The translations under genes were made by a program, and so were the position numbers. A stretch of 56,482 bases of DNA from Ignavibacteria bacterium (GTDB lineage Bacteria > Bacteroidota > Ignavibacteria > Ignavibacteriales > Melioribacteraceae). Of this stretch, positions 3,306-8,896 are shown one piece after another. The notes beneath the pieces are model-generated. The model had not been told where the DNA came from, did not search any database, and worked only from the letters and a program-made list of their open reading frames with translations. The stretch is taken from the NCBI GenBank assembly GCA_016873835.1, contig VGVY01000006.1, positions 1 to 56,482 on the forward strand, written 5' to 3'. Position 1 is the stretch's first letter. Each line of letters opens with the position of its first letter.

Positions 3306-5565
3306 ATAAAATTCGATCGGTTTCTAATAAAAATTTTTTTATTTCTTGAATGTTTTTTGTCTGTTTCCAGCCTTTATCAAAATTAGTGTTTTGTACAATT
3401 TGGGCTATAGATGCTAAAACTTTAAGATGCACATTTCTCATATCATCAGATCCAGCTAAAGCAAAAACAGCATAGGCTTTTTCATTTTGCGGCCCAATGA
3501 TTATTCCTTCATCACATTTTACAATTATCATTTTAAATATTCCATCCCCTTCAATAAAGATATGTGGAATAGCTAATCCGGGGATTATCATTGTGCTCCC
3601 AACCTTTTCTCTTTCAATAAATTGTCTTCTGATATCTTCAACTGAAATTCCTAAAGCCAGATTAAATTTTTCAGAAATCAGATTTATAAAACTTCCATAA
3701 TCAAGTTTTTCCTTTGCTAATATAATTTCAGAATCTTTTACAAGCTGCGAAAACTCGTCCTCTTTCACTGATTTAACAACAGTTGGCGAGTAACCAAATA
3801 TGATATCTCCAGTTTCTAAATTATCGTTTTGTGAAAGTAATGTAAATGAATCTTTACGTTTTAAACCAATTGGAACGAACAGAAAATCTTGAATATCCGG
3901 CAAAAGAAGAAATGTTTGAAGGTCAATATTTTTTTCAATTTTAATTTCTTTTTCTGCAAGCATTCCAGTTTGAATTAAATTTTCAAATTCATTTAAATCA
4001 ATGCTCCTTAAAACAAAATTTTCAATTTGAATTTCTTCAAGTAATTTTTGAGATATTTTTTTATCACTGACATTTAAATGTGCATATACATTTGGAATCC
4101 AATAAGCAGTTCGCCCAAATTGAGCTGAAAGTACATTTACTTTAGCATTTGAAGTTAGTGAAATGAGTAATTGTGCATTTTCTGCATCGGCTTTAGAAAG
4201 TATATCTTCATCAAGTGCATTGCCGCAGATAGAATTTAATCCTACTCTTTTTGCTATTTCACAATGCTCTTCGCTTGTATCAATCAAAAATACATTACCA
4301 AATTCTGCAAACTTCTTTGCTAAAATAATTCCGAGTGGACTTGCCCCAACAATTATTGTCCCTTCTCTTTTATCAGAACTAAAAACAAGCTCATTTCTAT
4401 TTTTTAACCAATCAACTGCCCATTTTAAAAAAACCGGAACAGTTGCGGTTGTAAAGAATGCCATAAAAACTAGAATTGAAAAAATCTCCTGGGTAATTAT
4501 TCCAAGCCCTAATCCAATTTGAGCAATTATTATTTCGACTGCACCTCTTCCATTCATCCCACTTCCAATTGTAATTCCTTCTCTCCATCCATTTCCAGTA
4601 GGCAGATAAAAAATTGCAGTACCAATAATTTTAGAAAAAGTTGCAACAACAGTTATTACAATCAAAAAAACTAAATCAGTTTGAAAGACTGATAATGAAA
4701 CATTAAAACCAGCTGTTACAAAAAAGATTGGAGCTAAAAATCCTAATGAAAGGTTATGAACAAGATTTGATACATCGTGCGAAATTTTCTTTTCCATTAC
4801 CCCTTCTCGAAGGAAAAGACCAGCGAAAAATGCACCAAGAATTGAATGAAGACCGGCAAGTTCAGCCATTTCAGCAAATAATAAACCGACCAAAAGAACA
4901 ACTGTGAAATTAGTTGACCTATGTGTAAGACCTATTTTGCTTAATTGCTTACCAATTAGCGGAAGTATTTTTAAACCAATAAAAGAAGCACCGCCAAAAA
5001 AGAGAATCGCTTTACCAAAAACAAAAGTAATTTTCAACAGATCAAATGAATTGGTTTTTACATATGCAATTATTCCGGCGAAAACAACTAAAGCAATTGT
5101 ATCAGTTACAAAAGCACTTACAAGCATAACATGCGCAATTCTTGTTCCTAATAATTTTAGGTCAACTAAAATCCTTGATTTTGTTGCAAGGGCAGTAACT
5201 CCAAGGGCAATTCCAAGAAATAAACTATTTGCTTCTCCACTTCCAAAAGACATCCCTAACCAATAACCAAAACCGAAAGGAATAAAAAAACCGCCGAATG
5301 CAGCAAGTAATCCCTCCTTACTTGCTTTTCGCAAATCTCTCAAATTGATTTCCATTCCGATATAGAGCATTAGAAGAAAAACACCTACTTCAGCTAAAAT
5401 AAGAAGTTCATCTTTAGGTGTAATAAGTCCAAGAATAGGTGGCCCGAATATTATTCCGGCAAGCAATTCTCCTAAAATTGCCGGATATCCTAAACGATTT
5501 ATCAGTGCACCAGATGCCCATGCGATAAGTAAAACTAAGATTAGATTAAGAAAATCGATTTGCAA
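3286..5565 (-). CDS. CPA2-type cation/proton antiporter fused to TrkA-N-like and PTS-EIIA-like domains
   Basis: A 759-residue membrane protein. Residues 1-390 are a Na+(K+)/H+ exchanger of the KefB/NapA class: about 12 helices, an early GYPAILGELLAGIIFGPPIL motif and an ALATKSRILVDLKLL stretch. Residues about 400-500 resemble a TrkA-N/RCK nucleotide-binding domain (TIIVGASPLGIILAKKF, FLIDTSEEH). Residues about 610-755 resemble the fructose/mannitol EIIA domain (PtsN-like), including IPGLAIPHIF with the phosphorylatable histidine at about H668 and a second histidine in HLKVLASIA. The start is TTG with AGAAGGGA about 10 nt upstream. No other PTS genes are nearby, so the EIIA part may regulate the antiporter. 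Ion specificity cannot be read from sequence. Confidence 0.88.
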   Translation of the reverse strand: MQIDFLNLILVLLIAWASGALINRLGYPAILGELLAGIIFGPPILGLITPKDELLILAEVGVFLLMLYIGMEINLRDLRKASKEGLLAAFGGFFIPFGFGYWLGMSFGSGEANSLFLGIALGVTALATKSRILVDLKLLGTRIAHVMLVSAFVTDTIALVVFAGIIAYVKTNSFDLLKITFVFGKAILFFGGASFIGLKILPLIGKQLSKIGLTHRSTNFTVVLLVGLLFAEMAELAGLHSILGAFFAGLFLREGVMEKKISHDVSNLVHNLSLGFLAPIFFVTAGFNVSLSVFQTDLVFLIVITVVATFSKIIGTAIFYLPTGNGWREGITIGSGMNGRGAVEIIIAQIGLGLGIITQEIFSILVFMAFFTTATVPVFLKWAVDWLKNRNELVFSSDKREGTIIVGASPLGIILAKKFAEFGNVFLIDTSEEHCEIAKRVGLNSICGNALDEDILSKADAENAQLLISLTSNAKVNVLSAQFGRTAYWIPNVYAHLNVSDKKISQKLLEEIQIENFVLRSIDLNEFENLIQTGMLAEKEIKIEKNIDLQTFLLLPDIQDFLFVPIGLKRKDSFTLLSQNDNLETGDIIFGYSPTVVKSVKEDEFSQLVKDSEIILAKEKLDYGSFINLISEKFNLALGISVEDIRRQFIEREKVGSTMIIPGLAIPHIFIEGDGIFKMIIVKCDEGIIIGPQNEKAYAVFALAGSDDMRNVHLKVLASIAQIVQNTNFDKGWKQTKNIQEIKKFLLETDRILFDRNNG

Positions 5566-6889: not shown

Positions 6890-7507
6890 TTAATATCTTA
6901 ACTCAAACCCAAACTTGACTAACCCATTTATTTTTTCTTTTGTAAGTGTTGAAGTTGATTTCATAACATCAAGAGACCAGCTATTTCTCCAATCATCATC
7001 ATTTACCAACCCATAACCAACAAAAAAAGAAATTCTTTTTGATAATTCCAAACCAACAAATATTTCTGGAATTAGATACACTTTACCTTGCGATCCTCTA
7101 GATGACAAATTACTTTTTTCACCAAATCCGAAACTGTAATGAGTATTTATGCCAACCATTGAAAATAAACGCCATACAATATTGGTTCTTAATGCAAGCT
7201 CAAGTTCAATTCCCATCAAATTAAAATCTCCAAAATAAAATCCAGGTTTAATTTCCAATTTGTTGTTATAAAAAATCGGGATATGCCAAGAATGTGACAG
7301 CACTAAACCAAAAGAATATTTCTCTGAATTTTCTTCCTTTTTTAGAATACTACTCATAAAATATTGTTTTTGATTTACATCAATTGCAAACGAATATACT
7401 TGTAATGATAAACTCCTATTGTAATCTTGAGCTGTTATAAAATTTACAGATAATAAAAATGAAAGAATGATATATAATTTCTTCAAATGAAAAGTTTGTT
7501 TTTTCAA
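6890..7507 (-). CDS. exported beta-rich protein, probable small outer-membrane protein, unknown function
   Basis: Not recognised as a named family. The 205-residue product has an N-terminal signal peptide (basic KKQTFHLKK, then a hydrophobic segment ending at NFITAQ, with cleavage likely near residue 26). The rest is alternating, aromatic and glycine-rich, like beta-barrel strands (YSFGLVLSHSW, SFFVGYGLVND), and it ends in ...GFELRY, an aromatic C-terminus typical of BamA substrates. It is convergent with ilvE and divergent from lexA, so it is probably its own transcription unit. Location in the outer membrane is inferred from composition only. Confidence 0.72.
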   Translation of the reverse strand: MKKQTFHLKKLYIILSFLLSVNFITAQDYNRSLSLQVYSFAIDVNQKQYFMSSILKKEENSEKYSFGLVLSHSWHIPIFYNNKLEIKPGFYFGDFNLMGIELELALRTNIVWRLFSMVGINTHYSFGFGEKSNLSSRGSQGKVYLIPEIFVGLELSKRISFFVGYGLVNDDDWRNSWSLDVMKSTSTLTKEKINGLVKFGFELRY

Positions 7508-7550: not shown

Positions 7551-7579
7551 TTGACAAGTGAACTTGTGTTCACTATATT
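7551..7579 (+). promoter_or_regulatory. lexA promoter with perfect LexA operator in the spacer
   Basis: Consensus -35 TTGACA (7551-7556), exactly 17 bp, then -10 TATATT (7574-7579). The spacer holds a perfect 18-bp palindrome AGTGAAC-TTGT-GTTCACT (7557-7574), which contains GAAC-N4-GTTC, the SOS box form known from Gram-positive LexA proteins. A repressor bound here would block RNA polymerase, consistent with lexA autoregulation. Confidence 0.85.
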
Positions 7580-7582
7580 AGC

Positions 7583-7600
7583 AGTGAACATAGGAACACT
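7583..7600 (+). promoter_or_regulatory. second, imperfect LexA-like site overlapping the lexA ribosome binding site
   Basis: AGTGAAC-ATAG-GAACACT keeps the left half of the upstream operator exactly and spaces the right half the same way, but the inner bases of the right half are changed. It lies 26 bp (about 2.5 helix turns) from the first site measured left end to left end, and includes the AGGA ribosome binding sequence before the lexA ATG. It may be a weak second operator. Confidence 0.45.
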
Positions 7601-7603
7601 ATA

Positions 7604-8239
7604 ATGAAAACTCAATTAACAGACCGACAGCAAGAAATACTTAACTTCATTCAAGAGTATGTCGATTTTAACGGTTTCCCTCCAACTTACAGAGAGATTG
7701 GGAAAAGATTTAATATCGTTAGCACATTTGGAGTTAAACGTCACATTGATGCTTTAATAAAAAAAGGATACTTAAATAATGAAAGTAATCTAAGCCGCAC
7801 TTTATCTATTATAGATATAAAATCAAGACATGTAACAACTTTAACTAATAATATTATTGAAATTCCAGTGGTCGGTCGTGTTGCCGCTGGTATGCCAATC
7901 TTTGCAGAAGAAAATATTGAAGGTAGTTTAAGTATCGATAAAAATTTTCTTGGCAGTAGAACTGAATGTTTTGGTTTAAAAGTCCGCGGCGATAGTATGA
8001 TTAATGCCGGAATTTTGGAAGGAGATCTTGTAATTATTCAGCCTCAAAAAGAAGCTGCTAATGGTGATATTATAGTCGCTCTTCTTCATGATGAAGCTAC
8101 TATGAAAAAATATCTACTCGAAAATGGCACAATTTATTTAATTCCAGAAAATGAAAATTACAAACCAATTGTTGTAGAGAATAAAGAAGAGTTTACAATT
8201 ATTGGAAAAGTAATTGGTGTGTTCAGAAGTTACAATTAA
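7604..8239 (+). CDS. lexA: LexA repressor, self-cleaving SOS regulator
   Basis: Represses DNA-damage genes and self-cleaves when RecA filaments form. The 211-residue protein has the winged-helix domain (residues 1-70: LTDRQQEILNFIQEYV, GFPPTYREIGKRFNI) and the S24 peptidase domain. The cleavage site A95-G96 is in GRVAAGMP, the serine is S131 in GDSM, and the lysine is about K168 in EATMKKY, so the catalytic dyad is intact. The recognition segment (STFGVKRHIDAL) differs from E. coli LexA, in keeping with the GAAC-N4-GTTC operator in its own promoter. Two small genes follow closely and may belong to the same SOS-controlled transcript. Confidence 0.96.
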   Translation: MKTQLTDRQQEILNFIQEYVDFNGFPPTYREIGKRFNIVSTFGVKRHIDALIKKGYLNNESNLSRTLSIIDIKSRHVTTLTNNIIEIPVVGRVAAGMPIFAEENIEGSLSIDKNFLGSRTECFGLKVRGDSMINAGILEGDLVIIQPQKEAANGDIIVALLHDEATMKKYLLENGTIYLIPENENYKPIVVENKEEFTIIGKVIGVFRSYN

Positions 8240-8249
8240 CGGAGGAAAA

Positions 8250-8498
8250 ATGAAGACTATTCTATTTTCAACAGCAATCTTCAACAGAAATAGAGTAAAA
8301 TTTTTGTATGGATTAAATCAAATTATTTTGGAACCTTATTACGTTGCACGAAATAAAAATGGTAAGAAAGTGATTTATGGCAAAACAAATGGAATAAAAG
8401 AAATAAAAATGTTTGAATATGAAAAAATATCGAACATAAAAATCTTGGGATTTGAAAAATTTTCACCAATAATTCCGATAATACCATTGTGTAATTAA
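8250..8498 (+). CDS. small protein with WYL-like sequence, lexA operon, unknown function
   Basis: An 82-residue protein starting 10 bp after lexA. The ATG at 8250 is chosen because GGAGG (8241-8245) lies in front of it; an earlier in-frame start would overlap lexA. It has no signal peptide. The stretch VKFLYG...IILEPYYVARNKNG...YGK...KMFEYEKISNIKIL (about residues 14-68) has the spacing of a WYL domain (aromatic strand, EP-Y, hydrophobic strand, then F-Y/L-x-x-I), a ligand- or DNA-binding fold often linked to DNA damage and phage defence. No helix-turn-helix precedes it, so it would be a minimal stand-alone domain. Weak assignment from pattern alone. Confidence 0.6.
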   Translation: MKTILFSTAIFNRNRVKFLYGLNQIILEPYYVARNKNGKKVIYGKTNGIKEIKMFEYEKISNIKILGFEKFSPIIPIIPLCN

Positions 8499-8500
8499 AA

Positions 8501-8896
8501 ATGAAAACAGCGAACAAAAAAATAGACCGAGTTGATTCTTTGATTGACCATTTATGGCAGCATGGATATCTTACGCTCAGCAGAAAATATGGGAAATATC
8601 TCCCCGCCCCAACTCCTATTGGTAATTATGAAGTTGATGCAGTTGCTAAATACAAGAAAAAAATTGCCCTTGGCTTAACCCTAACTGCAGAAGATCTGGA
8701 TGATCCAAATCTGATTACAAAATTAATAGCATTATCAAATTCTAAACTGAAACTTTCAGCATCAAAAGTTACTTTGTTTATAGGAGTTCCAAACGAATTA
8801 CTAATTAAAGCCCATCTAATTTTATCATCACTCGATGATGCAATAAGCAGCCAAATTAAAATCGTAACTTTACCTGGAGGGAAAAGTCTATCGTAA
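8501..8896 (+). CDS. small protein with weak nuclease-fold resemblance, lexA operon, unknown function
   Basis: A 131-residue cytoplasmic protein that starts 2 bp after the previous stop, so it is probably translationally coupled; there is no Shine-Dalgarno. An N-terminal helix (RVDSLIDHLWQHGYLTLS) is followed by IGNYEVDAVAKYKKKIALGL (residues 40-59) and a strand KVTLFIGVP. The E44-x-D46 then lysine-rich strand vaguely recalls the core of PD-(D/E)XK nucleases such as Hjc or Mrr, but the expected E-x-K on the following strand is not present (it reads ALGLT), so it would be an inactive or divergent relative. Position after lexA suggests a role in DNA-damage response. Function unknown. Confidence 0.62.
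   Translation: MKTANKKIDRVDSLIDHLWQHGYLTLSRKYGKYLPAPTPIGNYEVDAVAKYKKKIALGLTLTAEDLDDPNLITKLIALSNSKLKLSASKVTLFIGVPNELLIKAHLILSSLDDAISSQIKIVTLPGGKSLS

What the first reader, a model, noticed from the sequence alone, without database searches (positions are those of the whole stretch)
7551..7600. Gram-positive-style SOS box placed exactly in the spacer of the lexA promoter
A perfect 18-bp palindrome with GAAC-N4-GTTC fills the 17-bp spacer between a consensus -35 TTGACA and -10 TATATT, and an imperfect copy overlaps the ribosome binding site. The GAAC-N4-GTTC motif is known for Bacillus-type LexA, not the CTGT-N8-ACAG of E. coli. This lets the SOS regulon of this lineage be predicted.
Basis: partly seen in the sequence, partly recalled or inferred. 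Interest (0 to 1): 0.6.

Follow-up and report, generated by a model that had tools for sequence, protein, structure and literature searches.

The report
Twin LexA operators of Ignavibacteria
The palindrome is a real DNA-damage switch in front of the lexA gene, conserved across the whole Ignavibacteria lineage in its own form rather than the Bacillus form, and it also controls the two halves of a split error-prone DNA polymerase but not recA.

Summary
Confirmed and extended. Window 7551-7600 holds -35 TTGACA, operator 1 AGTGAAC-TTGT-GTTCACT in the 17-bp spacer, -10 TATATT, and operator 2 AGTGAACATAGGAACACT over the ribosome-binding site of a genuine LexA (7604-8239). The 7-bp arms are perfect; the 4-bp centre is not palindromic.

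The same twin-operator promoter stands before lexA throughout Ignavibacteria. The conserved core is AGTGNNC-N4-GNNCACT. The exact Bacillus core GAAC-N4-GTTC occurs in only 4 of 65 first sites and 0 of 65 second sites, so 'Gram-positive-style' is only partly right.

In 79 relatives, 80 strict matches occur against 3 in the control; nearly all lie at lexA, at Y-family polymerase genes, or before the C-terminal half of a split DnaE2. The own genome has one further good promoter site, between dinB-dnaE2N and dnaE2C. recA has none. One relative with an altered LexA recognition helix carries the same altered operator at lexA and dnaE2C, strong evidence that LexA is the binder.

lexA heads a class-wide operon with a stand-alone WYL-domain protein and a nuclease-fold-like protein. 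Many relatives carry a second LexA with its own operator. No Ignavibacteria LexA motif was found in the papers searched. Binding itself is untested.

The parts
7551..7556 (+). -35 element TTGACA of the lexA promoter
   Evidence: sequence; same -35/17-bp/-10 register in 47 of 65 relatives
7557..7574 (.). LexA operator 1, AGTGAAC-TTGT-GTTCACT, fills the promoter spacer
   Evidence: conserved in 65 lexA promoters and in named Ignavibacteria
7574..7579 (+). -10 element TATATT
7583..7600 (.). LexA operator 2, AGTGAACATAGGAACACT, 26 bp downstream of operator 1 start to start
   Evidence: 26-bp offset in 57 of 65 promoters
7592..7596 (+). Shine-Dalgarno-like AGGAA inside operator 2
   Evidence: sequence; family form AAAGGAG in the same place in many relatives
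7604..8239 (+). lexA (type A), 211 aa: LexA HTH plus S24 peptidase; cleavage site A95-G96, S131, K168; recognition helix STFGVKRH
8250..8498 (+). second gene of the lexA operon: stand-alone WYL domain, 82 aa
   Evidence: downstream of lexA in 79 of 81 loci; WYL Pfam hit in 12 of 34 members; model matches DriD, PafBC, BrxR, CapW, Z 9.4-12.6
8501..8896 (+). third gene of the lexA operon: PD-(D/E)xK-fold-like protein, 131 aa, D46 invariant but ExK motif not kept
   Evidence: 76 of 81 loci; model and matches, (best Z about 8, a moderate match)

Best explanation
The two palindromes are operators of the LexA encoded just downstream. Inferred mechanism: LexA dimers on operator 1 (between -35 and -10) and operator 2 (start site and ribosome-binding site) block RNA polymerase and so repress the lexA-wyl-nuclease-fold operon; RecA filaments on damaged DNA trigger LexA self-cleavage and release it. 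The same LexA holds one further promoter in this genome, the divergent control region between dinB-dnaE2N and dnaE2C (G000:C2:67991-68008), so the damage response switches on an error-prone polymerase made in two pieces. The recognised sequence is a lineage form, AGTGNNC-N4-GNNCACT with best half-site AGTGAAC. Shown by sequence: site anatomy, conservation, genome-wide specificity, co-occurrence with this LexA, and co-change of helix and operators in one relative. Inferred: binding, repression, cleavage.
For: Site anatomy and uniqueness in the genome. Twin operators in 65 Melioribacteraceae promoters and in Ignavibacteriaceae. Pattern AGTGAAC-N4-GNNCACT in 79 genomes: 80 matches against 3 in the reversed control; 77 at lexA, Y-family polymerase genes or dnaE2C, 3 elsewhere, which equals the control; none in G064, G067 and G074-G078, where only UmuD-like S24 proteins or nothing matched the LexA model. 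All 33 dnaE2C genes checked have a site 20-85 bp upstream. A matrix built from lexA sites alone scores 16-27 at about a dozen dinB/umuC promoters against at most 8.2 upstream of 50 recA genes. G045 has helix SSVNGAKTH in place of STFGVKRH, with GCTGTACAAAATTACAGT at lexA and ACTGTACAAATGTACAGT at dnaE2C. LexA hallmarks met.
Against: No binding or expression data. The own-genome cassette site is among the weakest of its set (16.5) and departs from the consensus at one of the ten fixed positions. The helix/operator co-change rests on one genome; another relative (L270, helix STNGVAGH) keeps the ordinary operator. Operator 2 also overlaps the ribosome-binding site, so part of its conservation may serve translation.
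Confidence: 0.92

Rival explanations
1. The sites belong to the Bacillus-type GAAC-N4-GTTC system as such, through shared descent or transfer, and the regulon is the Gram-positive one with recA and uvr genes.
For: Operator 1 of the window has the exact core; spacing of the arms is the same; best half-site AGTGAAC contains GAAC.
Against: Exact core in 4 of 65 first sites and 0 of 65 second sites; the flanks are AGT/ACT; LexA-A groups with Calditrichota, apart from the Bacillota sequences sampled; helix differs; recA lacks a site.
Confidence: 0.06
2. A different regulator (for example the WYL protein of the same operon, or another S24 repressor) binds the palindromes, and LexA does not.
For: The WYL protein is co-transcribed and WYL domains serve in other damage regulators (PMC11804915, PMC12340889 abstracts).
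Against: The WYL protein has no HTH (model). Sites are absent from genomes without LexA-A. Operators at lexA and dnaE2C changed together in the genome whose LexA helix changed.
Confidence: 0.04
3. The palindromes are incidental promoter sequence or chance.
For: The bare core with mismatches is at chance level in the window and GTGAAC-N4-GTTCAC with 2 mismatches is at control level genome-wide (39 against 45).
Against: Conserved class-wide at fixed spacing; 80 against 3 in the control.
Confidence: 0.01

Closest known systems
Bacillota LexA (DinR) box, CGAAC-N4-GTTCG (from own knowledge; GAAC motif in C. difficile, PMC4234289, seen only as a search hit)
   Same: Two inverted arms containing GAAC/GTTC, 4-bp centre, operators in the lexA promoter, error-prone polymerase in the regulon.
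   Different: Outer AGT/ACT in place of C/G is the most conserved part; inner two bases variable; recA not in the regulon; different recognition helix.
Balneolaeota LexA regulon (PMC7739468)
   Same: Canonical LexA in a nearby phylum; several targets are translesion polymerases.
   Different: Motif there is the direct repeat TTACACATATTTTWTACATA and recA is a target.
Non-canonical LexA of Bacteroidetes (PMC8565304)
   Same: S24 repressors controlling dinB and DNA polymerase III alpha-type genes, often more than one site per promoter.
   Different: CI-like DNA-binding domain; [quoted passage not shown] Here the LexA is canonical.
lexA2-imuA-imuB-dnaE2 mutagenesis cassettes and DnaE2B-PolY modules (PMC12926913, PMC3901139)
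   Same: A second LexA in an operon with a Y-family polymerase and DnaE2-type polymerase; DnaE2B linked to active PolY.
   Different: DnaE2 is encoded in two genes here, often under different operators; no ImuA seen; partners include ogt, UPF0047 and DUF72 genes.
WYL damage regulators DriD and PafBC (PMC12340889, PMC11804915)
   Same: The second gene of the lexA operon has the WYL fold.
   Different: It is a WYL domain alone, without an HTH, and sits in the lexA operon.

Membership tests
Canonical LexA repressor (TIGR00498) | LexA HTH domain plus S24 peptidase over curated cut-off | tested here: met
   217.6 bits against 110.95; PF01726 and PF00717
Canonical LexA repressor (TIGR00498) | Ala-Gly cleavage site and Ser/Lys dyad | tested here: met
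   A95-G96, S131, K168 invariant in 19 homologues and aligned to solved LexA
Canonical LexA repressor (TIGR00498) | RecA-stimulated self-cleavage | not testable with these tools
   needs protein
Canonical LexA repressor (TIGR00498) | operator in its own promoter | tested here: met
Bacillus-type LexA box GAAC-N4-GTTC | exact core in the window | tested here: met
   operator 1 only, 7560-7571; operator 2 lacks it
Bacillus-type LexA box GAAC-N4-GTTC | core conserved in the lineage | tested here: not met
   4 of 65 first sites, 0 of 65 second sites
Bacillus-type LexA box GAAC-N4-GTTC | flanking C...G | tested here: not met
   T...A in the window; AGT...ACT in the family
Bacillus-type LexA box GAAC-N4-GTTC | recA in the regulon | tested here: not met
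E. coli-type box CTGT-N8-ACAG | CTGT and ACAG arms | tested here: not met
   absent at 7551-7600
WYL domain family (window 8250-8498) | WYL fold | tested here: met
   pLDDT 87.5; the 14 best entries are all WYL regulators, Z 9.4-12.6, next entries 8.3; Pfam WYL in 12 of 34 members, best E 0.00043, though not in the window's own copy
WYL domain family (window 8250-8498) | N-terminal HTH of WYL transcription factors | tested here: not met
   82 aa, WYL only
PD-(D/E)xK nucleases (window 8501-8896) | fold | tested here: inconclusive
   restriction enzymes, EndoMS and XisH among the matches, best Z about 8, no Foldseek E-value under 0.02
PD-(D/E)xK nucleases (window 8501-8896) | catalytic D and (D/E)xK | tested here: not met
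   D46 invariant but GxT stands where ExK is expected (by eye)

The most novel reading that the evidence does not exclude
Ignavibacteria run a two-key mutagenesis switch. The error-prone polymerase DnaE2 is encoded as two separate proteins: the catalytic N-half and the fingers/clamp-binding C-half. In species with two LexA repressors the C-half is under LexA-A and the N-half sits in the LexA-B operon, so that a working polymerase forms only when both repressors are cleaved. LexA-A also controls a free WYL domain that may report single-stranded DNA back into the response. The window species keeps the simpler state: one LexA, one shared divergent operator for both halves.
Probability: 0.3. Interest if true: 0.82.

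Novelty: new variant of a known kind. Interest (0 to 1): 0.6.

Why it matters
It supplies an operator, a small testable regulon and a second, orthogonal LexA operator for a class with no LexA motif in the papers searched. It adds a lineage in which LexA drives translesion synthesis but not recA, and points to two unstudied damage-operon proteins and a split error-prone polymerase.

Tried and rejected
GTGAAC-N4-GTTCAC with 2 mismatches genome-wide: 39 hits against 45 in the control, not usable. Other one-mismatch sites in the own genome: most lie inside genes, one in a tRNA-like stretch, one in what looks like 23S rRNA (by eye), none in promoters except the cassette. recA: operon cinA-ligT-recA, no site in the 3.5 kb read or upstream of 50 recA genes. 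Site near a PagL gene in G060 taken as chance. B-operator search upstream of dinB and recA: none. A general rule linking helix residue R46 to the operator: contradicted by L270. A split intein in DnaE2: the N-half runs only about 20 residues past the homology, too short for one.

Full report
What is there. The reported promoter is exactly as described at 7551-7600, with one correction: the 18-bp palindrome has perfect 7-bp arms around a non-palindromic TTGT. The downstream gene is a canonical LexA with all cleavage residues. In the 2.745-Mb genome the sequence GTGAAC-N4-GTTCAC has no other copy with one mismatch or fewer, and the broader AGTGNNC-N4-GNNCACT occurs exactly twice, both in this promoter.

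Lineage. Named relatives are Melioribacteraceae, Ignavibacteriaceae and other Ignavibacteria. In 65 LexA promoters of the family the layout is TTGACA, operator 1, TATATT, about 8 bp from operator 1, operator 2, a few bases, ATG; the two operators start 26 bp apart in 57 of 65. The same layout stands in Ignavibacteriaceae. Each operator has one strong half AGTGAAC and one looser half such as AGTGCTC or AGTGTAC. The outer AGTG/CACT and the C and G next to the centre are kept; the inner two bases vary. Operator 2 carries the ribosome-binding site (AGGAA here, AAAGGAG in many relatives), which explains its asymmetry.

Regulon. A matrix built only from lexA sites finds strong sites upstream of dinB, umuC-like or umuDC genes in more than a dozen relatives and none upstream of 50 recA genes. 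A strict search of 79 genomes gives 80 matches against 3 in the reversed control; those away from lexA were read one by one, and all but three are at Y-family polymerase genes or directly before one gene, the C-terminal half of a split DnaE2. All 33 such genes examined have the operator. In the window's own genome the site AGTAAACATCTGGACACT lies between dinB-dnaE2N and the divergent dnaE2C.

Split DnaE2. The N-half (L202:7226-8920) has PHP and polymerase catalytic domains and keeps the aspartates in PDVDLDF and KID; the C-half (L202:4301-5983) has fingers, helix-hairpin-helix and a weak OB domain. They match the two sides of one polymerase with the break near residue 580-590 of E. coli DnaE. 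A separate full-length DnaE of about 1150 residues is present. The split is the same in many genera, so it is not an assembly error. Calling it DnaE2 rests on the missing C-terminal domain, the best partial match to the error-prone polymerase model and the second-copy status; no tree of DnaE was built.

Who binds. Genomes lacking LexA-A lack the sites, except G061, a fragmented assembly in which lexA was not found but dnaE2C has a site. G045, whose helix reads SSVNGAKTH, has operators with CTG/CAG in place of GTG/CAC at both lexA and dnaE2C. One other relative with a changed helix keeps the ordinary operator, so no residue-by-residue code is claimed.

Second LexA. About half of the genomes have a distant paralogue, LexA-B, with helix NRSTVQQH and its own operator ACCATAC-N4-GTATGGT, present about once per genome that has LexA-B, at its promoter, and absent from the window genome. 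LexA-B often heads an operon with ogt, UPF0047, DUF72 and, in G011, G045 and G010, dnaE2N or dinB-dnaE2N, while dnaE2C carries the LexA-A operator. The idea of a two-repressor switch follows from this layout and is not tested.

lexA operon. Two small genes follow lexA almost without gaps in 79 and 76 of 81 loci. The first is a stand-alone WYL domain by fold. The second resembles PD-(D/E)xK nucleases moderately, with the ExK motif lost.

Known or new. No paper found describes an Ignavibacteria LexA motif; the library holds only open-licence papers. The nearest studied phyla use other motifs. The mechanism is ordinary SOS control; the operator form, regulon and operon content are a lineage variant.

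Noticed in passing
window 8250-8498 (+): Stand-alone WYL domain protein co-transcribed with lexA across Ignavibacteria (79 of 81 loci); WYL domains bind single-stranded DNA in other damage regulators.
   Followed up: partly
window 8501-8896 (+): Conserved third gene of the lexA operon with a nuclease-like fold whose usual catalytic ExK is not kept.
   Followed up: partly
L202:4301-5983 (-) and L202:7226-8920 (+), own genome contig C2: DnaE2-type polymerase encoded as two separate halves, conserved across genera; every C-half gene checked is preceded by a LexA-A operator.
   Followed up: partly
L208, L209, L214: In relatives with two LexA proteins the two polymerase halves lie under different LexA operators.
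   Followed up: partly
L082-L106: Second LexA (type B) with helix NRSTVQQH and operator ACCATAC-N4-GTATGGT, about one site per genome.
   Followed up: partly
L202:2764-3423 (-) and 3437-4321 (+): SRAP (SOS response associated peptidase) and DUF72 genes beside the cassette in the own genome; DUF72 also travels with the LexA-B operon.
   Followed up: no
G000:C26:8000-11500 (L152): recA sits in a cinA-ligT-recA operon without a LexA site.
   Followed up: yes
window 6890-7507 (-): 205-aa ORF divergent from lexA with no Pfam or NCBIfam match.
   Followed up: no
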